Shown in pieces: positions 1 to 16,883 of a stretch of DNA of 64,000 nt (positions are counted from its first letter, which is position 1; each line of letters opens with the position of its first letter). The position numbers and the translations under genes were made by a program. Location: the IMG/VR virus record IMGVR_UViG_3300049893_002759, positions 1 through 64,000 of that record; one strand, written 5' to 3'. Below the pieces are notes generated by a model. It was not told the origin of the DNA. It did no database searches and was given only the letters and a program-made list of their open reading frames with translations. This stretch comes from a virus.

Positions 1-119
1 TAAGAAGACTGGCAGAGGAGTATAGTAGGTAGAGCAAGAGTGGTGGGAGCCTCCCCGCGACGGTCAAAATAGTGCTTTTTGACGACGTCACTCACTCTTT
101 TTTCTATCTTTTTCTCCAT
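1..119 (-). CDS. possible partial small ORF running off the left edge
   Basis: An open frame starts at the ATG whose complement is at 117-119 and runs on the minus strand to the window edge without a stop (39 codons visible). The start reads MEKKIEKRVSDVVKKHYFD, which looks like a charged helix. It lies downstream of the minus-strand gene at 227-553 and would be the fifth gene of that cassette. Against it: I see no convincing SD just upstream (only a G-rich run about 30 nt away), and the 3' part is not distinctive. I do not recognise a family. Low confidence; the sequence left of the window decides it. Confidence 0.25.
   Translation of the reverse strand, partial: MEKKIEKRVSDVVKKHYFDRRGEAPTTLALPTILLCQSS
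63..83. repeat. short inverted repeat
   Basis: GTCAAAA at 63-69 is complementary to TTTTGAC at 77-83 with a 7-nt loop. It lies inside the doubtful left-edge ORF and has no clear U-run at the correct distance on either strand, so it is not called a terminator. Otherwise I see no confident gene in 1-226. Confidence 0.4.
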
Positions 120-175
120 CCGTTTCTGCCAATCTTTTGGCTCTATTCCCCCTCTCTTTCTGCCTCACAAGCGTA

Positions 176-192
176 GCCCTGCGTAGCAGGGC
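176..192. repeat. perfect GC-rich hairpin
   Basis: GCCCTGC (176-182) and GCAGGGC (186-192) form a perfect 7-bp stem with loop GTA, flanked by GCGTA and GGAGCG. It lies 3' of the gene at 227-553 and its TA tract. No T-run follows on either strand, so it is more likely a small dispersed palindrome or a transcript-end stabilising fold than a classical terminator. Looking for further copies in the full genome or host would settle that. Confidence 0.55.
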
Positions 193-203
193 GGAGCGTG
201 TGT

Positions 204-237
204 CTATATATATATATATATATATACTATATATAGA
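204..237. repeat. (TA)n self-complementary tract at the end of a minus-strand gene
   Basis: Almost pure alternating TA, broken once by a C near 227. The TAG stop of the minus-strand gene (complement of 227-229) lies inside it, so the mRNA would end in a self-complementary AU hairpin. It is the last of four structured elements that follow the minus-strand genes. A simple-repeat polymerase-slippage tract is the plain alternative. Confidence 0.7.
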
Positions 238-553
238 GTGGACACCAATGACTGTGGGGTAGGTTAAGTTTTGTCCCGCCACACTCACATGGGGGTTTGG
301 CTCTATGCCTCAATCCCCAATAACAAGTGCTCTCTGTCCATATCCAGAAACTTAGTTCTCCAGTAGAGGGTTTAATATATTCTACCTCTACTTGATTAGA
401 AGCCAATATCCCTATTACCTTACCCGGAAGCCATTTGCCTGTAGGCCCTCGGTCTATTACTCCGCTCCAACGAGGGTAATCATCGGCGGCCCCATCCACA
501 AAGGATTGGCCCCTTTCAAATTCAACTTCATCACCTACGTGAAAGGTTACCAT
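227..553 (-). CDS. hypothetical 108-aa protein with C-terminal Cys/His cluster
   Basis: Function not recognised. The reading frame extends further upstream, but that part only translates a TA repeat (IYIYIY). The start at 553 has a clear AAGGAG about 7 nt before ATG, so I take 108 aa. The N-terminus (MVTFHVGDEVEF) reads like a small beta-barrel or SH3/KOW-like fold (weak inference). The C-terminus carries CEC, then HSHWCP, a CxC...HxxWC pattern typical of a small zinc site. It is the fourth gene of the minus-strand cassette, separated from the one before by a 58-nt spacer that contains a 26-bp palindrome. Confidence 0.75.
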   Translation of the reverse strand: MVTFHVGDEVEFERGQSFVDGAADDYPRWSGVIDRGPTGKWLPGKVIGILASNQVEVEYIKPSTGELSFWIWTESTCYWGLRHRAKPPCECGGTKLNLPHSHWCPLYI

Positions 554-585
554 ATTTGTTCTCCTTGTTGTGTGTGTTATACATG

Positions 586-611
586 TATATACATATATAT
601 ATATGTATATA
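586..611. repeat. 26-bp perfect AT palindrome directly after a stop codon
   Basis: Positions 586-611 equal their own reverse complement over 26 bp; the core alternates TA with one C and one G. The TAA stop of the minus-strand gene at 612-1652 (complement of 612-614) abuts it. In RNA it gives a 13-bp arm (about 11 bp plus a small loop), occupying the same relative position as the ribozymes after the two preceding genes. Possible roles are a 3' stability hairpin, an RNase III site or a protein-binding palindrome. Confidence 0.8.
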
Positions 612-1652
612 TTACCACCATGAGTTATCTTCAAAAGGGTCGCGATCGTCAAGATCGTCTGTCGTCTTGATTTTCTTCTTTCTCCATTCCCATTTGGTAT
701 CGTTCTTATATAATTCAATACTAATCTTGCTAGAATTACTGAAAAGAGACGAGCTGTTCAAAAGAGACACTATCCATTCCCCTTCCTCCAAGGGAAGGAA
801 GCCCACTTGCCTCCACTTAGGCTGAATCCTCTTGTCAAACCCTCCATACACATCACCAGGAGACTGGCGGTATGCATCAAATGACAGGAGTAAAGCAACA
901 TACGTTTGTCTCACTTCACAAACGAGACCTCCTATATGTCCACGCTGAAATCGTTTATTCTCTTGCATGGTAAACTGGCGCTTTATGCCAGGACGAGCCC
1001 ATATTTGAGCTGGTTCTAAGTGGTGGATGATGCCATATCCAGGGTCAACAACAATGTCAACCCCAAGACTGACAAGTAGCTTGCTCCATCGGTTTACTTT
1101 GGCATTAGCAATGTCTCTGATAAGAGCCCACCAGATAGCAGCCAATCGTTGTGGGCCAACACTGGCCAATATCTTTATCCACTTAAAGTGTTTTTCGATA
1201 ATTTCTTCTTCATTCGTTAATGCAGCATTAACCAATAAGTCAATACTCGGATAGTCAGGGAATTTTTCCTTTAATTGAGTGAGTCGCTCTTCGGCATACT
1301 GCCAATCCTGGAAACGCCCCAAGTCTACCACTCTACCAGTTATCGTGCCTTCAATTATGAAGGCTCTTTGCTGACCAAACTCACCTTCAGGAAGGCCAGG
1401 GACATAGAAATACAGTCCCGTAGGAGTGTTAAAGCTGTTGCGCATATTGCACGTAGTATGCGATATGTGGTCTACATACCGCCGTACAGATACTGTCTCT
1501 ACCGGTAAGGGAGACACTGACGATCGAGGCTTTACTGCAAGCCACGACACATAGGTGTCATAGTCATAGGGATAATAAGGCGCATACTCATCATGTTGCT
1601 CACCATACTCACTGTCCATATTATCAAGGATCAAGCTGGTGTTGCTGTTCAT
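612..1652 (-). CDS. hypothetical phage protein, possibly ADP-ribosyltransferase-like fold
   Basis: 346 aa from the ATG at 1652, which has GGGAG 6 nt upstream; the extra 15 upstream codons have no SD. I do not recognise a named family with certainty. Visible blocks are NSFNTPTGLYFYVPG (about 72-86), RVVDLG (107-112) and a segment ending VVDPGYGIIHHLEP (about 201-214). This order of a start block, a central helical region with paired Trp and a G-I-I-H-x-x-E-P end resembles uncharacterised phage proteins with an ART-like layout (inference). The C-terminus is strongly basic then acidic (WRKKKIKTTDDLDDRDPFED). Third gene of the minus-strand cassette; hammerhead ribozyme 1 lies 53 nt upstream of its start. 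Confidence 0.8.
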   Translation of the reverse strand: MNSNTSLILDNMDSEYGEQHDEYAPYYPYDYDTYVSWLAVKPRSSVSPLPVETVSVRRYVDHISHTTCNMRNSFNTPTGLYFYVPGLPEGEFGQQRAFIIEGTITGRVVDLGRFQDWQYAEERLTQLKEKFPDYPSIDLLVNAALTNEEEIIEKHFKWIKILASVGPQRLAAIWWALIRDIANAKVNRWSKLLVSLGVDIVVDPGYGIIHHLEPAQIWARPGIKRQFTMQENKRFQRGHIGGLVCEVRQTYVALLLSFDAYRQSPGDVYGGFDKRIQPKWRQVGFLPLEEGEWIVSLLNSSSLFSNSSKISIELYKNDTKWEWRKKKIKTTDDLDDRDPFEDNSWW

Positions 1653-1705
1653 GGCATACTCCCTGTGCTTGGTATAGTGTATATACACCATGTACATACA
1701 CTACT

Positions 1706-1760
1706 GGACTCATCAGGTAGTGCATTACACTACTACAGGGCAAGAAGCCCTGTTTCGTCC
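1706..1760 (-). ncRNA. type II hammerhead ribozyme (copy 1)
   Basis: Read on the minus strand from 1760, this 55-nt element has every conserved hammerhead core position: GGAC + GAAA, stem III CAGGGC/GCCCTG with loop TTCTT, then TA, stem I GTAGTG/CACTAC with loop TAATG, then CTGATGA and GTCC. GGAC and GTCC close stem II at the open ends, which makes it type II. Predicted self-cleavage follows the A at minus-strand nucleotide 27 (between 1734 and 1733). It begins 2 nt after the stop codon of the gene at 1763-2053 and lies upstream of the SD of the gene at 612-1652. Copy 2 has the same architecture with different, compensating stem sequences. Confidence 0.95.
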
Positions 1761-1762
1761 TA

Positions 1763-2053
1763 TTATTTATGGTTACGTTGTAGCCACTGCATACCTGTAC
1801 GATATGCAGCTAACGCGTTTTCGTTTTCGACTAATGCTGTGTCTAGAGTATGATTATATTGTACCTCTGACCGCTCGAGCTTATGTACAATCCTCGATGC
1901 CCAAGGCCTGTAACCTAGCACAAGTTGTACGAGAGATACAGGTAAGAGTACAACATGTACTAGTGCCGTAAGCCACATACGAAGTGTAGCAGCAAGGAAA
2001 CGAAGAATAAGAACAAGAACAACGATACCAACACCAACGATGATCTCTCTCAT
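1763..2053 (-). CDS. small membrane protein, two predicted TM helices
   Basis: 96 aa, with AGGAG 6 nt before the ATG at 2053. Residues 4-22 (IIVGVGIVVLVLILRFLAA) and about 28-48 are strongly hydrophobic, forming two membrane helices or a hairpin; the C-terminal half is polar and probably soluble. The family is not recognised. Size and topology would fit a holin-like or host-membrane-modifying protein, but nothing in the sequence proves it. It is bounded on both sides by hammerhead ribozymes (2076-2130 upstream, 1706-1760 downstream), so cleavage of a polycistronic RNA would release it as a single-gene message. Confidence 0.8.
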   Translation of the reverse strand: MREIIVGVGIVVLVLILRFLAATLRMWLTALVHVVLLPVSLVQLVLGYRPWASRIVHKLERSEVQYNHTLDTALVENENALAAYRTGMQWLQRNHK

Positions 2054-2075
2054 GACTTACTCCTGGTTTACTGAT

Positions 2076-2130
2076 GGACTCATCAGTGCACGCATCACGT
2101 GCAGACAGGACACGAGGTCCTGTTTCGTCC
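2076..2130 (-). ncRNA. type II hammerhead ribozyme (copy 2)
   Basis: Read on the minus strand from 2130: GGAC + GAAA, stem III CAGGAC/GTCCTG with loop CTCGT, TC (cleavage after C, between 2104 and 2103), stem I TGCACG/CGTGCA with loop TGATG, then CTGATGA and GTCC. All catalytic core nucleotides are present. It is 55 nt long, exactly like copy 1; stem I is wholly different between copies yet fully paired in each, and stem III differs by one compensated pair. It starts 8 nt after the stop of the gene at 2139-2306 and ends 22 nt before the ATG at 2053. Confidence 0.95.
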
Positions 2131-2138
2131 TACTTATG

Positions 2139-2306
2139 TTATTTCCACACTCTTACCCACGTGACAACCATATCTAGCCTCGAACAGACCAGACGGTTGA
2201 TAATATCAGTACGTGTATCACTAGCATCAATCCGTGCTGCTTCGAACTCCTCTTGAGTAAAGGTAAGGCGACCGAATACTGTTTGCACAATAATGTTTTC
2301 TTCCAT
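2139..2306 (-). CDS. hypothetical 55-aa acidic/helical protein
   Basis: Starts at the ATG at 2306 (MEENIIVQTVFG), with AAAGGA 7 nt upstream; the frame is open further upstream, but that would place translation through the leader hairpin at 2327-2373, so the short form is preferred. It contains FTQEEFEAARIDASD and a Trp/Val-rich C-terminus. No family recognised; the size suits a small regulatory or early phage protein. First gene of the minus-strand cassette. Confidence 0.65.
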   Translation of the reverse strand: MEENIIVQTVFGRLTFTQEEFEAARIDASDTRTDIINRLVCSRLDMVVTWVRVWK

Positions 2307-2326
2307 GATTTGTTCCTTTGTTGTTA

Positions 2327-2373
2327 AAGCTTTGTAGTCTAGACAGAGAATTCTGTCACTCGACCACAAGCTT
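2327..2373 (-). promoter_or_regulatory. leader RNA hairpin upstream of the minus-strand cassette
   Basis: Three stacked helices: AAGCTT at 2327-2332 pairs with the identical (self-complementary) AAGCTT at 2368-2373; GTAGTC (2334-2339) faces GACCAC (2362-2367); and GACAGA (2342-2347) pairs with TCTGTC (2352-2357) around loop GAAT. The middle helix has an A-C mismatch if read from the plus strand but a G-U wobble on the minus strand, so the fold fits minus-strand RNA. It ends 20 nt before the ATG at 2306 and could control translation or protect the 5' end. Confidence 0.6.
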
Positions 2374-2381
2374 TGTTTTAT

Positions 2382-2431
2382 CAGATCGACCCCGGGGGTC
2401 CGTTAGGATAAAGGATCCCTTAGATCGATCT
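2382..2431. promoter_or_regulatory. cluster of nested palindromes upstream of the minus-strand cassette
   Basis: AGATCGA (2382-2388) and TCGATCT (2425-2431) are inverted repeats enclosing GACCCCGGGGGTC (2388-2400), AAGGATCCCTT (2411-2421) and GATCGATC (2423-2430). The density of palindromes is unlike the rest of the window. It could be an operator array or a further structured RNA in the leader. Just beyond it, the complement of 2434-2439 reads TATAGT, a possible minus-strand -10, but no good -35 is visible. Confidence 0.45.
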
Positions 2432-2618
2432 TAACTATACCTCCCACCCACCAAAAATAATTTCCAACCTACTACTTACTAGTACCGTCATTTTTGAAAT
2501 AGAAATCCAAATTTGCCCTATATAGGCGCTTTTGTTTCAGAAAAATAATTTCTATTTCTCGGCATAAATGGCGCTTTCTCGACCCAGATGCTATACTTTT
2601 ACCTACTGGAGTTATCTG
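2432..2618. promoter_or_regulatory. divergent spacer with inverted and direct repeats and plus-strand promoter candidate
   Basis: No gene seen. GAAATAGAAAT (2496-2506) and ATTTCTATTTC (2548-2558) are an 11-bp perfect inverted repeat. TATAGGCGCTTTT (from about 2521) and AAATGGCGCTTTC (from about 2566) share GGCGCTTT as a direct repeat with a 45-bp period. TATACT at 2592-2597 is a possible -10 for the gene at 2619, which has GGAG 7 nt before its ATG; no TTGACA-like -35 stands out. The strand of all confident genes switches here. Confidence 0.5.
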
Positions 2619-3831: not shown

Positions 3832-6800
3832 GTGAAAAATATTAATCTAAGATCGCCCATTTGGCTAGATATTGAAACTGGAGGTATTGATCCTTCTAAG
3901 TCTAGTATTCTGTCTATTGCTAGTGGACAAGGTACAGACATTAGATCTACATTTTCTGCACCCCAAGCGGGCACATTTCTTTCTGCCTTTTCGGAAGAAA
4001 AAATTATTCCACAACTTCGTGGCAAGTCTCTTTTGTCAGAAAAGCAAAATATCGAATCCCTGATACAACAGCTGGAAACTAATCCACGTACTCCCATAGC
4101 AGGATTTAATATCAGGGGATTCGATATTGGATTCATACAGCGCAGAGCTAGAACTTATGGCTTAGAAAAACGATTTCTACAGACTATGAGAAATAGAGAA
4201 GTATTGGATCCTGCTAATTCAGTGAAAGATATTGTTGCATCTGCTATTAGTAGACATGCAGATATAGGTACATTTAATCAAAGTTTGGGTGCAGCAAGTT
4301 GGCAAGAAGCTGAATCAGTATTTGGAGAACTTCCCTTTAGTAAAAGGCCAGTTGAATATAACCTTCTTGCTCAGGTAAAAGGTTATCTTACAGCTAATAG
4401 AGAAACAGCAATGTTTAAGGGATGGAAGCTAGAAGACTTATATAAGTTACTTCCAGGAGAAGGTATAAAAGGTCAGGCTCACGAAGCTGCCACAGACATT
4501 AAGATGACTCAAAGAGTGATGCAAGCTGCTCGGAGTGGAGAACTAGAAAAAGAGTTACAAAATCCAACTAAAGCTCTCCAATGGATGGAAACAGTAAAGG
4601 CCAGGGGCTTTGGGAAATTCCAAACCGAACGCTTGCTAGCGCAAGCGGATATAGATCAATTAGGATTAAAAGTACCACGTTGGTGGCAAACTAAACAAGC
4701 CAAAATTGCTGGACTAGGCCTAGCAGCCGTTGTGGCAGCAAGCTTGTTTTCTGGCAAAGATGATGAATATAACACGATAGAAGGTCTTCCTCATGGTGGC
4801 TTTGCCCAATCAGGTAGATTACAGCTTACAGAGTTTGGTTCTGGTTATCGAGGTATTATAAAAATCAGTAAGCTTCTAACGCAGAATAATCCTTTTGCTA
4901 CTAACTCTAGTGTAGCTAATGCTGGAGATATTCGTTATGCAGCAAAATATATTCGAAATCTTGAACAGGGCTTTAAAAAGTCAGGTATGTCTCATGAAGT
5001 AGCACAGGCCTTTACAGATGTTAAAACAGAAATACGAACTGCTATAGAAGCAGGACATAAAGATATCATTTCTGTATTTGAAGAAAATCTTCATAATACT
5101 GCTGATAGGCTGGGTGTTAGTCCTGTTTCTTATCTGAAAGAAATAATTAGACACGAAAACGTTCATGTGGGGATTCGTGTCAATAAACCATCTTTAGGTC
5201 GTGGCATCTTTGAATTGGATCAGCAAGAAAATCTTATTACAGATTTTGAAGAACTGAAAACATTTGCAAAAGAACATGGTATTAAACCGTCTTCGTTATA
5301 TACTTGGTCTAGTAGATTACTTCAACATAATTATAATAATAAAAATGTTGATTTATATTTAGAAGAAAGATTAGCTTGGGGTATTCAGCATGCTACACGA
5401 ACAGGTTCTCGTGGGCGTCTTGCTGCAACAGGCATTCCTGCAGAAGGTCTTTATTCTGCAACTAAAGAACAGTTTATTCAATCTTATTCACCAAATTCAC
5501 CTTTATCTTCATCAGAGTCTGAGTTTCTTGATGCTTTATACCAACCTCTTTCTACAAAAGAAATGCAAGTTGGTTTAGAATTTGAACGACAAGGTCGAGT
5601 ATCTCGTTTAGCGAAAGCCAAATATTTTAAAGAATGGATTGACGTTAAAACGCCAGTTACACAAAATGCGTTTTCTGGATTTGATGATAATTTCAATACA
5701 ATTGAAGGATTAAATCACACCGGTATTGCTGGTGTTCGTCGTAAAAAGATTACAGATTTTGGATCTGGTTTCACAACAGCTAAAGGTGTCGCAGAGCATT
5801 TAACTAAAACAGCTACTACTGGCCTTAAAGAAGTCGTTAATAGCGCTGTTGTAAAAGAAACTTTACAATTAGAATCTGAAGGAATAGCTCGTCAATTATT
5901 GGATGGCAGAGAGGCTGCCAATATAATAGAAGGTCTCGATCATTCAGGTATAGCTTCAATATTGCGTAAAAATACAGACTTTAGTTCTCCTGCTGTAGGA
6001 GCACGTACGCTACGTCGTGCTGAACGTTTATATAAATCGACAATGCGAGCTTCATTGCAGGAAGCTGGATATAAAGGCAAAATAGATTGGTTAAGTCATA
6101 TAGATGAAGATACTGGAGATATTGTATTAGCAGCTCGTAATGCTAAAGGAGAACGACTAATGGGTATTCAGCGTTCTCTGCAAGAAGGAACAGTTAGTTT
6201 AACAAGTATAGAAATTGATCCAAGTTTGCGTGGTGGTCTTGGTCGTCGTTTTTATGAACTAGAAGGCAGAATGCTTAAGCGTTTGGGCTTTGAGGGTGCT
6301 GAGATTACATCCCCGGTTGCTAATCCAGTAACAGGTAGAATGCAAGCTCAAATGTATGGATCTAAACCAATGTCTATTTTTAATAGAGATCTTGAAGAAG
6401 CCTATGGTGTAAATCCAACTGAATTTCATGAAATGTTAATGTCCAAGAAAATGACAAAAGAACAGTGGGAAGCTGTTGGACTTGCTCCTACTTTTGTGGG
6501 TCGTATTCCTACTCGTAATTCTGCAAATAACACAATAGACGGAATGGGCCATTCTGGTATTGCTCATAAGCTTAGAAAATTACTTTCGCCATTTGGATCT
6601 AAATGGGATGGACTTAGAAACTTTATACAAGGCACAGAAACGTTTCAAGAAATGATATCCAGTAAAGGATTTCAGAAAGCCCTCAAAGATGCTGTTACTG
6701 TTAGACAATTAGGAATACCTGGTGCATTTGGTTCAGTACATGAAATGCGTGCAACCTTTAGGGGTCGTGAATTTTCATTTGCTCGTAAAACTGGATCTAT

Positions 6801-7353
6801 TCAAGAATTAGAAACTGATACTATGAACATGTTTTCAGAATCATTTGCCCCATCTGTATATTCACATTCCAAGTCTCATATAGATATGGAAATGTTTCAA
6901 GGAAAAGAATTTGCTGATGTTGCTAATCTTGATGCCAATAATATTACCGAACTAGTATCAAATGTTAAAGAAATGCATCGTAAGGGAATCGTTCACGGCG
7001 ATCTTCATCAGGGTAATATTATGCTTACTAAAGAAGGTAATGTTGGCATTATTGACTGGGGTACAGCAGGACCAACAGGATCTATACCAGATATTAGACT
7101 TAATGGTAAAGAAGTAACAGTGAATAATGTAGTTCAACGAAATGAAGCAATCGATTGGAATAGAGTATTTAGAATTTCAAAACGATCTGGAAATTCACTT
7201 GAATCTTATCATGCCGCACCATTAGAAAGTTCTGAAATTAGATCTAAAACTGTTGTTGGTAGAAAGAAAAAGAGACAATCAGAATTACAAAAAGCTGCTT
7301 CTGCAACTGCTTGGATGCATGGTAAAAATGGTGGCAGAAAATCTAGGTTATAA
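3832..7353 (+). CDS. 1173-aa multidomain (polyvalent-type) protein: DEDD exonuclease, HExxH, GNAT-like, kinase-like modules
   Basis: GTG start. Module 1 (about 8-235) is a DnaQ-like 3'-5' exonuclease with ExoI D13-I-E15, ExoII N93...FD98 and ExoIII H217-E-A-A-T-D222. A hydrophobic segment at 291-307 follows. Module 2 has HENVH at 441-445 (HExxH zinc-peptidase pattern) with E511/E512 as a possible third ligand. Module 3 (about 760-845) has IEIDPSLRGGLGRRFYELE (793-811), like GNAT motif A. Module 4 (about 955-1110) is kinase-like: Gly-rich GIPGAFGSVH (961-970), candidate Lys986, HGDLHQGN (1055-1062) and IIDWG (1073-1077). Four copies of an N-T-I-E-G-L-x-H-x-G-x-A linker (about 314, 622, 697 and 900) precede or separate the modules. 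The architecture fits polyvalent proteins, which are thought to be delivered with phage DNA against host defences; the role here is inferred. Confidence 0.85.
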   Translation: MKNINLRSPIWLDIETGGIDPSKSSILSIASGQGTDIRSTFSAPQAGTFLSAFSEEKIIPQLRGKSLLSEKQNIESLIQQLETNPRTPIAGFNIRGFDIGFIQRRARTYGLEKRFLQTMRNREVLDPANSVKDIVASAISRHADIGTFNQSLGAASWQEAESVFGELPFSKRPVEYNLLAQVKGYLTANRETAMFKGWKLEDLYKLLPGEGIKGQAHEAATDIKMTQRVMQAARSGELEKELQNPTKALQWMETVKARGFGKFQTERLLAQADIDQLGLKVPRWWQTKQAKIAGLGLAAVVAASLFSGKDDEYNTIEGLPHGGFAQSGRLQLTEFGSGYRGIIKISKLLTQNNPFATNSSVANAGDIRYAAKYIRNLEQGFKKSGMSHEVAQAFTDVKTEIRTAIEAGHKDIISVFEENLHNTADRLGVSPVSYLKEIIRHENVHVGIRVNKPSLGRGIFELDQQENLITDFEELKTFAKEHGIKPSSLYTWSSRLLQHNYNNKNVDLYLEERLAWGIQHATRTGSRGRLAATGIPAEGLYSATKEQFIQSYSPNSPLSSSESEFLDALYQPLSTKEMQVGLEFERQGRVSRLAKAKYFKEWIDVKTPVTQNAFSGFDDNFNTIEGLNHTGIAGVRRKKITDFGSGFTTAKGVAEHLTKTATTGLKEVVNSAVVKETLQLESEGIARQLLDGREAANIIEGLDHSGIASILRKNTDFSSPAVGARTLRRAERLYKSTMRASLQEAGYKGKIDWLSHIDEDTGDIVLAARNAKGERLMGIQRSLQEGTVSLTSIEIDPSLRGGLGRRFYELEGRMLKRLGFEGAEITSPVANPVTGRMQAQMYGSKPMSIFNRDLEEAYGVNPTEFHEMLMSKKMTKEQWEAVGLAPTFVGRIPTRNSANNTIDGMGHSGIAHKLRKLLSPFGSKWDGLRNFIQGTETFQEMISSKGFQKALKDAVTVRQLGIPGAFGSVHEMRATFRGREFSFARKTGSIQELETDTMNMFSESFAPSVYSHSKSHIDMEMFQGKEFADVANLDANNITELVSNVKEMHRKGIVHGDLHQGNIMLTKEGNVGIIDWGTAGPTGSIPDIRLNGKEVTVNNVVQRNEAIDWNRVFRISKRSGNSLESYHAAPLESSEIRSKTVVGRKKKRQSELQKAASATAWMHGKNGGRKSRL

Positions 7354-13631: not shown

Positions 13632-16600
13632 ATGAAGATCTTTGGATTTAACTTTGGAGAAAAAATTTTTGCTCCACTTGTAACTCCTGACACTCAAGTG
13701 TCACTTCGTAAACAGGATGCATCTCCAACAATACGTCCTGAATTGAAGTCTATTTCTATTCCAGAAAACAAAAAACCAGCTAATATTCCACCTGTTGCTT
13801 CTAAGGTACTTGCTTACAATCAAGTAGGGGCTCGTAGAGGGCAATTTAATGAATCAGAATATGATCTAGCTTTAATCAACCGTATTGAAGATACTGATTC
13901 TTATGTACATCAAGCTTTTGTCAAAAAAGTAGGCCTGATGTTTAAAGAAGGTTATGATCTTGTTGGTGCTGATCCTAAAACTATTCAGTACATTAAATTA
14001 CGTTTTGCTCAAATTGCTAGAGCTACAAACACCCCCACAGATGAGTTATTGCGTTCATTAGGCAGATCATTAATTAAAAAATCAAATGCCTTTCTTGTCA
14101 AAGCTAGAAAGGAATCAGCTTCAGGTGGACGTTCTCGTATAGTACCTGGTACTTCTAAAGAGTTAGAACCAGTAGCAGGTTATTTTATTGCTCCTGCAGA
14201 AACAATGCAGTATGAAGCAGACAAAAATGGTCGTGTTACTCGATGGAAGCAACAATTGCCAGATGGCCAGTTTACTTACTTTAGGCCAGAAGATGTTATT
14301 CATTTCTATTTTAATAGAAAAGATGGATTCATTTATGGTACTCCAACTATAGTACCTGTTATTGATGATATCCGTTCTCTTCGTAAAATTGAAGAGAATA
14401 TTGAATTGTTGGTATATCAACATTTATTTCCATTATTCCACTACAAGATTGGAACTGATGACTTTCCGGCTACAGTAGATGAACAAGGAAACGATGAAAT
14501 TGATTTAGCAAAACGAGAAATACAAGTTATGCCAGCAGAAGGTGGATTAGTCACCTCTCATCGTCATGAAATATCATTAATTGGTGCAGAAAACAGATCG
14601 TTGCGTGCAGAAGGTTATCTTGAGCACTTTAAAAAGAGAGTTTTTTCTGGTTTAGGTATTTCTGCAGTTGATATGGGTGAAGGCGAATGTTATTCAGCTG
14701 ATACAGAAACCTTAACGGAAAATGGATGGAAATTCCACTGGCAAATTGATCATACAACTGAACGTATTGCTACATATAATCCTGCAACTAATAAGATTGA
14801 ATTCAATTTTGCTAACTACAAGCATGAATCTCATTATCGTGGACCAATGTTTCATTTTACAAATGGAGAAGAACTTAATGTATTGGTAACACCAAAACAC
14901 GATATGTGGCTACAAAATGTAGTCCGTGTAAGTGTATGGGGTAAAGTTCATGCTGAAGATTTGTTAACTAAACCAAACTTACATTGCAACATGTTGTTAT
15001 CTACTGCATTTGATGAAGAAGAAGTATCGCAAGTTTTTCCTGATGAACTCATTGAATCTTGGGCTACTCTTGCGGGCTGGATTGTAGGTATTGGTGAATA
15101 TGTCCCTGCAACAAATCAAATTATGTTGAAAACTAATAAGATTCCTCGTGGAGAGCATCCTCTTGCTAGGGTCTTTAGCGAATTACATATTCCTTTTAAT
15201 GTAACTAAAGTAACAAGTCATGCTCGTCGTCATCTTGAGATTACATTTGATGCTGATGAATATTCTGGACAATTGAAAAAATACCTTAAATCTGAAGGCC
15301 ATTCTGTTGTAAATGAAGTTTTAAAGCTTCCTATTGCAGCAAGAAAAATTGTTGCAGACGAAATGTTAGCATCTGGTGGTACTAGTAAGGGATTTAAATA
15401 CATTAAGAAATATGGCAAGGCTCGTCACTGGTGGTTTGTATCTTCTAGTCATACAGTCTTAGATATTGTTCAAACAATACTTCTTTCTTGTGGTTATTTA
15501 GCTGTAAAAAAGAAAGGTCAACATAAAGACAAGTCTTTTGAATATGTTAATGTTCGCTGCGCATTGCGTAGACAACAATTATCTCCTATTAATCAAGAAA
15601 CTATTAAGCAGGTTTCATATGATGGAACTATTTACTGTTACAACGTGCCAAATCATCTATTTTTAACTAGACGACAAGGCTGTGTAGCTATTAATGGTAA
15701 TACTGCTAATCGTGCTACTTCAGACAATATGTCCCGCAACTTAGTAGACTCTGTAAAAGATATTCAACGTGTTATGGAGTCACAGTTTAGTGCATTCATA
15801 ATTAATGAATTATTGCTTGAATCTACATTTGGTTCAGATGTACTTAATGACGAATCTCGCGTATCTCTTAAATTTAAAGAGATCGATCTGGATTATCAGA
15901 TTAAAAAAGAAAATCATTATGCTGACCAATTTACTAAAAATACTATTTCTCATCATGAAGCTCGTATTGGTATGGGTCGTCAACCTATGCGTATGCCAAC
16001 AGCTGAAGAAATTGATGGTAATCCAAATATTGCTGAAAATTATCCAGAATGGTATGGAACATTTTGGAAACTTATTGATGAACCTAAAGCTCTTATTCAA
16101 GCTATCGACGAACCTTATTCTGCAGCAGCCATTACAGCCGCTGCCAATAAAGGAACTGAGGTAACTTCTGCTAATATTACAGAAGCCGGCGAACAACAAA
16201 AAGAACATGAAGTAGCTCTAGAAGCAGAAAAAGGTAAGGCTAAGGTTGCTATTGCTAAATTACGCCCTAAACCAGCTGCCAAAAAGAAAGATTCTTTCTT
16301 AAATGTAAAATTTGAAGCTTTAGAAAGTGACACGATTAGGATGATTAATCAAGGTAGTTTTTCTAATGACTGGTTAAAACATCTAGCATTCATGTCTGAG
16401 ACGGATATGATTCGTGATTTGCGTACAAAGGCTATGACAGCATTTGCTTCTGGTTATAGATCTATCAATCCACGTAGTGACCAACAAATTAATGCTACTA
16501 TGCGCGCGCGTAGTAAAATAGAAAATCGTGTTAATTTTTATGTTCAACGCTTAATTCGTCAAACTTTAGATGCAATTAAACGTCAAAATATTGATACTCT

Positions 16601-16883
16601 GGAGAAAGATGTTAGAATTCAAAAAGTTAAGGCAGCGTTTGAAGCATTTCGTTTCCGTAATGACTTTATTGAAGATGTGGAGGTCCGTAAAGCGTACAAC
16701 TTAGGAGTTATTGAAGCAGCACGAAGTCTCGGGCATACTCAATGGACACTGGCTGTACCACATGATTCTTGTTCTGGATGTAAATTAGCATCTCAAACAA
16801 TTCACCAAATTGGTGATAGTCTTGATTTAGAGGACGTACCTCCTCTGCATGCTAATTCTAGAAGTCAAATAAAGATTCTATGA
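13632..16883 (+). CDS. portal protein fused to MuF-like head morphogenesis domain, interrupted by an intein
   Basis: 1083-aa precursor. Portal extein N-part is residues 1-352, with the typical FIAPAETMQYEADKNGRV and PEDVIHFYFN blocks; the intein is 353-690; the portal C-part resumes at 691 (TANRATSDNMSRNL). Splicing would rejoin DMGEGE with TANRAT. After a Lys/Ala-rich linker (about 855-890), residues about 900-1083 resemble the Mu F/SPP1 gp7 morphogenesis domain (RKAYNLGVIEAARSLGH, CSGC, VPPLHANSR). The spliced product would be about 745 aa. SD AGGAG is 13 nt from ATG. The portal forms the dodecameric DNA gate; the MuF fusion would ride into the procapsid with it. The stop overlaps the next gene as ATGA. 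Confidence 0.9.
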   Translation: MKIFGFNFGEKIFAPLVTPDTQVSLRKQDASPTIRPELKSISIPENKKPANIPPVASKVLAYNQVGARRGQFNESEYDLALINRIEDTDSYVHQAFVKKVGLMFKEGYDLVGADPKTIQYIKLRFAQIARATNTPTDELLRSLGRSLIKKSNAFLVKARKESASGGRSRIVPGTSKELEPVAGYFIAPAETMQYEADKNGRVTRWKQQLPDGQFTYFRPEDVIHFYFNRKDGFIYGTPTIVPVIDDIRSLRKIEENIELLVYQHLFPLFHYKIGTDDFPATVDEQGNDEIDLAKREIQVMPAEGGLVTSHRHEISLIGAENRSLRAEGYLEHFKKRVFSGLGISAVDMGEGECYSADTETLTENGWKFHWQIDHTTERIATYNPATNKIEFNFANYKHESHYRGPMFHFTNGEELNVLVTPKHDMWLQNVVRVSVWGKVHAEDLLTKPNLHCNMLLSTAFDEEEVSQVFPDELIESWATLAGWIVGIGEYVPATNQIMLKTNKIPRGEHPLARVFSELHIPFNVTKVTSHARRHLEITFDADEYSGQLKKYLKSEGHSVVNEVLKLPIAARKIVADEMLASGGTSKGFKYIKKYGKARHWWFVSSSHTVLDIVQTILLSCGYLAVKKKGQHKDKSFEYVNVRCALRRQQLSPINQETIKQVSYDGTIYCYNVPNHLFLTRRQGCVAINGNTANRATSDNMSRNLVDSVKDIQRVMESQFSAFIINELLLESTFGSDVLNDESRVSLKFKEIDLDYQIKKENHYADQFTKNTISHHEARIGMGRQPMRMPTAEEIDGNPNIAENYPEWYGTFWKLIDEPKALIQAIDEPYSAAAITAAANKGTEVTSANITEAGEQQKEHEVALEAEKGKAKVAIAKLRPKPAAKKKDSFLNVKFEALESDTIRMINQGSFSNDWLKHLAFMSETDMIRDLRTKAMTAFASGYRSINPRSDQQINATMRARSKIENRVNFYVQRLIRQTLDAIKRQNIDTLEKDVRIQKVKAAFEAFRFRNDFIEDVEVRKAYNLGVIEAARSLGHTQWTLAVPHDSCSGCKLASQTIHQIGDSLDLEDVPPLHANSRSQIKIL
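14688..15701 (+). mobile_element. intein (338 aa) with degenerate LAGLIDADG-type endonuclease region, inside the portal gene
   Basis: Residues 353-690 of the portal precursor. Block A starts at Cys353 (CYSADTETLTENGWK); block B is VLVTPKHDMWLQ with the TxxH signature (T420, H423); block F is YDGTIYCYNVPNHLFL (664-678); block G ends CVAINGN with Asn690, and the +1 residue is Thr691. The penultimate residue is Gly instead of the usual His. The central part (about 470-640) has LAGWIVGIGEY (480-490) and a weaker second site near 575-585, resembling worn LAGLIDADG motifs, so homing activity may be reduced or lost. Splicing motifs look intact. Confidence 0.88.

What the first reader, a model, noticed from the sequence alone, without database searches (positions are those of the whole stretch)
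1706..2130. Two type II hammerhead ribozymes punctuate a small phage operon
Minus strand 1760-1706 and 2130-2076 are both exactly 55 nt and keep every core hammerhead nucleotide (CTGATGA, GAAA, and an NUH site GTC or GTA). Stem I sequences differ completely yet pair perfectly in each, and stem III differs by a compensated pair, so the folds are under selection. Each starts within 8 nt of one gene's stop and ends before the next gene's SD. Self-cleavage would turn a polycistronic phage RNA into single-gene messages with defined ends (5'-OH, 2',3'-cyclic phosphate). Hammerheads in phage are known; use as inter-cistronic punctuation on both sides of one gene is not something I know to be described.
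Basis: partly seen in the sequence, partly recalled or inferred. Interest (0 to 1): 0.92.

Follow-up and report, generated by a model that had tools for sequence, protein, structure and literature searches.

The report
Self-cutting RNAs between phage genes
Two small self-cutting RNAs (type II hammerhead ribozymes) sit on either side of one gene in a virus of bacteria; that layout was first reported in 2011 and is common in phages, but comparing hundreds of copies showed that many, including one of these two, carry a matching sequence that can fold the cutting centre shut, which looks like a built-in way to let the cut pieces go.

Summary
Minus-strand 2130-2076 (E1) and 1760-1706 (E2) are complete type II hammerheads. 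A covariance model built from 38 other phage hammerheads finds only these two in the window (64.0 and 59.6 bits, E about 1e-20). Rfam's Hammerhead_II model misses them, but it also misses nearly all same-core phage elements.

The novelty claim fails. Perreault et al. 2011 (PMC3088659) already reported clustered hammerheads flanking single genes in prophages, proposed cutting of long phage RNAs into single-gene mRNAs, and showed cleavage in vitro and in E. coli. Here I find 655 distinct type II elements in 418 loci, almost all viral contigs. In the 528-element viral set, the median distance from the upstream stop codon is 2 nt and to the next start 24 nt, and a single gene between successive copies is the commonest spacing.

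One feature I did not find described: in 189 of 655 elements (16 expected), including E1, the sequence just 3' of the ribozyme (N'UCAG) is complementary to the catalytic core (CUGAN). Core position N7 and N' covary (52 U-A, 29 C-G, 7 others; p about 5e-19). This anti-core hairpin excludes the active fold. The likeliest role is to release and lock the 3' product after cleavage; a pre-cleavage switch is the main rival. Cleavage here is untested.

The parts
2139..2306 (-). gene A, 55 codons (MEENIIVQTVFGRL...), SD AAAGGAA; no family match
   Evidence: PHROGs and Pfam negative for the ORF that contains it
2076..2130 (-). E1, type II hammerhead ribozyme; predicted cleavage between 2104 (GUC) and 2103
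   Evidence: structural scan; own CM 64.0 bits, E 1.9e-21; fold z -2.87
2070..2087 (-). anti-core hairpin of E1: A2087-G2081 (ACUGAUG) pairs with C2076-U2070 (CAUCAGU), loop AGUC 2080-2077; excludes the hammerhead core and stem II
   Evidence: MFE of the 3' product and of E1 plus tail; covariation of N7 with tail base across phages
2060..2064 (-). Shine-Dalgarno AGGAG of gene B
   Evidence: sequence
1763..2053 (-). gene B, 96 aa, probable small membrane protein (hydrophobic N-terminal half), the gene flanked by both ribozymes
   Evidence: no family match; no relative in viral contigs
1706..1760 (-). E2, type II hammerhead ribozyme; predicted cleavage between 1734 (GUA) and 1733
   Evidence: structural scan; own CM 59.6 bits, E 9e-20; fold z -4.53
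1674..1704 (-). 14-bp hairpin one nucleotide 3' of E2 stem II (GUAGUGUAUGUACA-UGG-UGUAUAUACACUAU)
   Evidence: MFE and centroid of E2 plus tail
1659..1664 (-). Shine-Dalgarno AGGGAG of gene C
   Evidence: sequence
612..1652 (-). gene C, 346 aa, unknown
   Evidence: no family match; no relative in viral contigs
227..553 (-). gene D, 108 aa, unknown; separated from gene C by an AT-rich inverted repeat, not a ribozyme

Best explanation
E1 and E2 are functional type II hammerhead ribozymes that cut the minus-strand transcript of a small myovirus operon on both sides of gene B. Shown by sequence: both folds, the positions, and the conservation of this layout in phages. Inferred: each cut leaves the upstream mRNA ending in the stem III hairpin with a 2',3'-cyclic phosphate soon after its stop codon, and leaves the downstream mRNA starting with 5'-OH and the stem I hairpin. 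In a type II hammerhead only the 4-bp stem II still holds the two products together. Inferred from covariation: in E1, as in many phage relatives, the 3' tail then pairs with the catalytic core (anti-core hairpin CUGAUG/CAUCAG), opens stem II, releases the 5' product, prevents re-ligation and leaves two stacked hairpins in front of an exposed ribosome-binding site. E2 lacks this hairpin but has a strong hairpin at the same place.
For: Own covariance model hits, E about 1e-20, made without the window's elements. 600 same-type elements against 0 with reversed core in 3.41 Mb. Context in viral loci: of 336 intergenic elements, 286 have both neighbours co-directional; stop-to-element median 2 nt, 78% within 10 nt, against 19% for random placement in other gaps; element-to-start median 24 nt; exactly one gene between successive elements is the commonest case (104 of 212); in 96 of 97 multi-element loci all lie on one strand. 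Cleavage of such tandem arrays in vitro, and of one array in E. coli, is published, as is a mapped transcript 5' end within three nucleotides of a hammerhead site in haloviruses HF1/HF2 (PMC3088659). Anti-core hairpin: 189 of 655 elements in 149 of 418 loci against 16.5 expected with shuffled tails. N7 and tail base covary: 52 U-A, 29 C-G, 1 A-U, 6 others, p 4.6e-19; no other of 79 tetramers shows it. Prediction written down before a fresh scan held 9 of 9 where the tail base is free. 'AG' follows stem II in 86% of GGUC stems, where it completes UCAG, but in only 20% of GUCC and 12% of GACC stems. The hairpin is in the MFE of every 3' product examined (98 of 98).
Against: No cleavage data for these two elements. 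Rfam's Hammerhead_II does not score them. E1 plus its tail is predicted slightly more stable with the anti-core hairpin than as a hammerhead even before cleavage (-24.8 against -23.0 kcal/mol without tertiary contacts), so E1 could be partly inactive. Energy of core-to-tail pairing in general is no better than with a reversed core, so the hairpin claim rests on the covariation. With GAUC stems and AG after them, C7 facing A occurs in 5 of 9. E2 lacks the anti-core motif. No relatives of the phage or its genes were found, so conservation at this very locus could not be checked. Co-transcription of the four genes is assumed; no clear promoter was found.
Confidence: 0.72

Rival explanations
1. 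The anti-core hairpin is a pre-cleavage switch: it holds the ribozyme off, and a signal (for example ribosome traffic at the stop codon next to the element, a phage protein or a ligand) decides whether the transcript is cut.
For: Hammerhead and anti-core folds exclude each other and are close in predicted energy; the anti-core fold is the more stable in 84% of 98 cases. The stop codon lies a median of 2 nt upstream, so a terminating ribosome would cover GGACGAAAC.
Against: The tail is transcribed after the whole hammerhead, so the active fold has the first chance. The hairpin is absent from most elements. Published tandem arrays cut efficiently during transcription.
Confidence: 0.2
2. The tail serves the active fold: it forms the known pseudoknot with loop I that holds stems I and II parallel, and its match to the core is incidental.
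For: Published for about 40% of hammerheads, with compensatory mutants (PMC3088659). E1 fits: loop I UGAU can pair with tail AUCA.
Against: Across this set loop I-tail pairing is no better than with swapped tails (22% against 20%). In 91 of 98 motif-bearing elements loop I matches the motif by at most 3 bp while the core matches by 4-6. Only the core explains the N7 covariation.
Confidence: 0.12
3. Two cuts around gene B release a fragment that is ligated into a circular or spliced RNA.
For: Hammerhead ends (5'-OH and 2',3'-cyclic phosphate) are substrates for RtcB-type ligases (general knowledge, not a tool result).
Against: Such products were looked for and not seen in comparable arrays. Arrays of up to 11 elements, each fitted between stop and SD, look like end-making, not circle-making.
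Confidence: 0.04
4. The ribozymes are passengers carried along with exchangeable gene cassettes and have no effect that matters to the phage.
For: Gene identities vary; elements cluster in arrays of small genes; the operon has a G+C content unlike the rest of the contig.
Against: Core, stems and position are kept in phages of very different G+C content, with compensatory changes.
Confidence: 0.1

Closest known systems
Type II hammerhead ribozymes of bacteria and phages, clustered around single genes (Perreault et al. 2011, PMC3088659, Figures 2 and 3)
   Same: Topology open at stem II, core, short stem II, position between genes, more than one copy around a single gene, proposed cutting into single-gene mRNAs.
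   Different: Short stem I with a mostly 5-nt U-N-A-N-G loop; the loop I-tail pseudoknot is not general in this set; E1 carries the anti-core tail motif, which the parts of that paper I read do not mention.
Rfam RF02276 Hammerhead_II
   Same: Order of parts and catalytic core.
   Different: Longer stem I and a CCA-containing tail; the model does not detect this short form.
Halovirus HF1/HF2 hammerhead variant upstream of the helicase gene (PMC3088659)
   Same: Phage hammerhead just upstream of a start codon, with a mapped transcript end at the site.
   Different: Divergent core, single element.
Viroid hammerheads
   Same: A complementary stretch can fold the core into an inactive form (from general knowledge, not tested).
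   Different: Viroid hammerheads process unit-length genomes, not mRNAs; other topology.

Membership tests
Type II hammerhead ribozyme | Conserved core CUGANGA, GAAA and cleavage triplet NUH | tested here: met
   E1 and E2 sequence
Type II hammerhead ribozyme | Three stems, I and III closed by loops, II open | tested here: met
   MFE and centroid structures of both elements
Type II hammerhead ribozyme | Helices supported by compensatory changes in relatives | tested here: met
   14 of 17 pairs with both-sided changes in 38 relatives
Type II hammerhead ribozyme | Match to a covariance model of relatives | tested here: met
   R1: 64.0 and 59.6 bits
Rfam RF02276 Hammerhead_II | Score at or above the gathering score of 37 bits | tested here: not met
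   no match at E <= 10; the model also misses most same-core elements elsewhere
Type II hammerhead ribozyme | Loop I to 3' tail pseudoknot (common, about 40%, not obligatory) | tested here: inconclusive
   E1 4 bp UGAU/AUCA possible, E2 none of 4 bp; not above swapped tails in the set
Type II hammerhead ribozyme | Self-cleavage in Mg2+ | not testable with these tools
   needs in vitro transcription
Phage gene-flanking hammerhead array (Perreault 2011) | Two or more hammerheads, same strand, around a single gene of a phage operon | tested here: met
   (distances 8/22 and 2/53 nt); phage hallmark genes terminase, portal, capsid, tail sheath
Phage gene-flanking hammerhead array (Perreault 2011) | Common transcript over all elements | not testable with these tools
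   no RNA data; promoter scan uninformative

The most novel reading that the evidence does not exclude
A large subclass of phage type II hammerheads has a conserved anti-core hairpin: a tail N'UCAG that covaries with core position N7 and folds the catalytic centre shut. It would make the ribozymes self-limiting or switchable (one cut, then release and lock of the product, or regulated cutting), so that phage operons are divided into separate mRNAs with hairpin-capped ends.
Probability: 0.5. Interest if true: 0.72.

Novelty: new member of a known kind. Interest (0 to 1): 0.5.

Why it matters
What hammerheads do for phages is stated to be open (PMC6155905; PMC10085705). The close fit of the elements between stop codon and ribosome-binding site, seen in hundreds of phage loci, points to mRNA processing. 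The covarying anti-core hairpin gives a specific mechanism that two point mutations and their compensation can test. It also shows that Rfam's type II model misses most of these elements, so they are under-annotated in phage genomes.

Tried and rejected
Rfam scans at gathering and permissive thresholds: no type II hit; traced to model insensitivity, not to absence. Loop I-tail pseudoknot as a general feature: not above swapped tails. A general energy test of core-to-tail pairing: positive against shuffled tails, but a reversed core does as well, so not used as evidence. A second tail register (GAGUC with GACUY): only suggestive, dropped. In the GGUC-stem replication set most UCAG motifs overlap stem II, so the tail base is not free there; only the 9 free cases and the AG-after-stem comparison were counted. 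Search for relatives of gene B, gene C and the terminase in viral contigs: none. A weak tblastn hit of gene C to a 735-kb uncultured phage (E 0.04) was not pursued. Literature: seven searches of the open-access library returned no account of the anti-core hairpin, but subscription journals are not covered.

Full report
What is there. On the minus strand near the left end of the window lies a four-gene operon: gene A (2306-2139), E1 (2130-2076), gene B (2053-1763), E2 (1760-1706), gene C (1652-612) and gene D (553-227). The rest of the window is a plus-strand virion module with terminase, portal, major capsid protein and tail sheath, so the record (68,055 bases, IMG/VR) is a fragment of an uncultured tailed myovirus. 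Its terminase is closest to that of Moorella phage MTATph1 at 34% identity.

The two elements. E1 and E2 are 55 nt each and fold as type II hammerheads: GGAC, GAAA, closed stem III, cleavage triplet GUC or GUA, closed stem I, CUGAUGA, GUCC. No other type II hammerhead occurs in the window, nor by pattern in the whole record. I therefore tested the model: in 15 phage loci that hold several dozen same-core elements it reports only 2. A covariance model built from 38 diverse phage elements, none from the window, has 14 of 17 base pairs with changes on both sides. It finds E1 at 64.0 bits (E 1.9e-21) and E2 at 59.6 bits (E 9e-20), nothing else in the window, and one element in Burkholderia phage Bcep176, a phage that the 2011 paper also lists as carrying a hammerhead.

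How common. A structural scan found 600 elements in 3.41 Mb against 0 with the core letters reversed, and 655 distinct elements in 418 loci after the last scan.

Where they sit. With a simple gene caller of my own (an approximation), 336 of 528 viral or window elements are intergenic with neighbours on both sides, and 286 of these have both neighbours in the element's own direction. The upstream stop codon is a median of 2 nt away (78% within 10 nt, against 19% for random placement in other gaps) and the next start 24 nt away. Between successive elements there is most often exactly one gene (104 of 212). In 96 of 97 loci with two or more elements all are on one strand. L107 is a clear case, with 11 elements in 7.5 kb, most of them fitted between a stop and a Shine-Dalgarno sequence. 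The window's spacing (8/22 and 2/53 nt) is typical.

Prior art. Perreault et al. [quoted passage not shown] coli, and looked without success for spliced or circular products. They also note that the 5' end of a halovirus transcript maps within three nucleotides of a hammerhead site. The biological reason for the association with phages is still called open.

A feature not found in those papers. Directly 3' of stem II, E1 continues CAUCAG (its first C shared with the end of stem II), the complement of its core CUGAUG. The 3' product of E1 folds into two abutting hairpins, stem I and ACUGAUG-AGUC-CAUCAGU. Among all elements, where the tail base before UCAG lies outside stem II, N7 of the core and that base form 52 U-A, 29 C-G and 1 A-U pairs against 6 others (Fisher p 4.6e-19 for U/C by A/G); of 79 tetramers frequent enough to test, no other shows the effect (next best p 0.05). 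Counted once per locus the result stands: 46 U-A and 26 C-G against 6 others. In the earlier, wider count (tail base inside or outside stem II), five loci contain both U-A and C-G versions. A prediction noted before the last scan held in 9 of 9 free cases. Where stem II itself ends in UC (GGUC), the next two bases are AG in 86%, completing UCAG, against 20% and 12% where it ends in CC; and in the GGUC class C7 is favoured when AG follows (p 2e-4). In all, 189 of 655 elements can form the hairpin, 16.5 expected with shuffled tails, in loci from 28% to 69% G+C. Loop I does not explain the motif. The statistics count related sequences, so the p-values are not exact, but the absence of the effect in other tetramers and the within-locus switches argue against mere descent.

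Mechanism. In a type II hammerhead, stem III belongs wholly to the 5' product and stem I wholly to the 3' product; only stem II (4 bp) joins them. A hairpin that captures the core and opens stem II would separate the products and block re-ligation, leaving messages capped by hairpins at both ends, with a 5'-OH start and a cyclic-phosphate end. This is inference from anatomy and covariation. The same hairpin could instead keep the ribozyme off before cleavage: the predicted energies of the two folds are close (-23.0 against -24.8 kcal/mol for E1 with its tail, tertiary contacts not counted). The order of transcription favours the hammerhead folding first. I put about 0.5 on the hairpin being functional in either role, and somewhat more on release than on switching. 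E2 lacks the motif but has a 14-bp hairpin starting one nucleotide after stem II, so both downstream messages would begin with two hairpins before the ribosome-binding site.

Limits. No RNA data; no relatives of this phage or its operon genes; co-transcription assumed; the operon lies at a contig end and has 44% G+C against 37% for the rest, so a chimeric assembly cannot be excluded, although it would not alter the elements themselves.

Noticed in passing
window 540-625 and 190-240, minus strand: The junction between genes C and D and the end of gene D hold AT-rich inverted repeats (TATATACATATATATATATGTATATA and similar) instead of ribozymes.
   Followed up: partly
window 2310-2440, minus strand: The leader of gene A is predicted to fold into two long hairpins (AGAUCGAUCU...GGUCGAUCUGAU and AAAGCUUGUGGUC...GACUACAAAGCUUU) just before its start codon; no Rfam match.
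   Followed up: partly
window 1-2420: The minus-strand operon is 44% G+C against 37% for the rest of the window and points away from the virion module; recent acquisition or assembly chimera possible.
   Followed up: no
window 13632-16883: The 1083-aa portal protein matches phage ribonucleotide reductase and thymidylate synthase families in PHROGs in stretches at or beyond the end of its portal match, as an intein shared between such genes would; not confirmed by Pfam.
   Followed up: partly
window 3832-7353: A 1173-aa protein next to the structural genes carries a phosphotransferase/kinase-like C-terminal domain (APH, RIO1) and a weak N-terminal RNase H-like match, with a repeated 'NTIEGLxHxGIA' motif in between.
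   Followed up: partly
L110 (hammerheads on its minus strand): Two hammerheads are followed directly by a G+C-rich hairpin and a run of T, as if placed just upstream of intrinsic terminators.
   Followed up: no
L057 and 14 other loci: Rfam Hammerhead_II reports only 2 of several dozen same-core phage elements; a model with short stem I would greatly extend annotation.
   Followed up: partly
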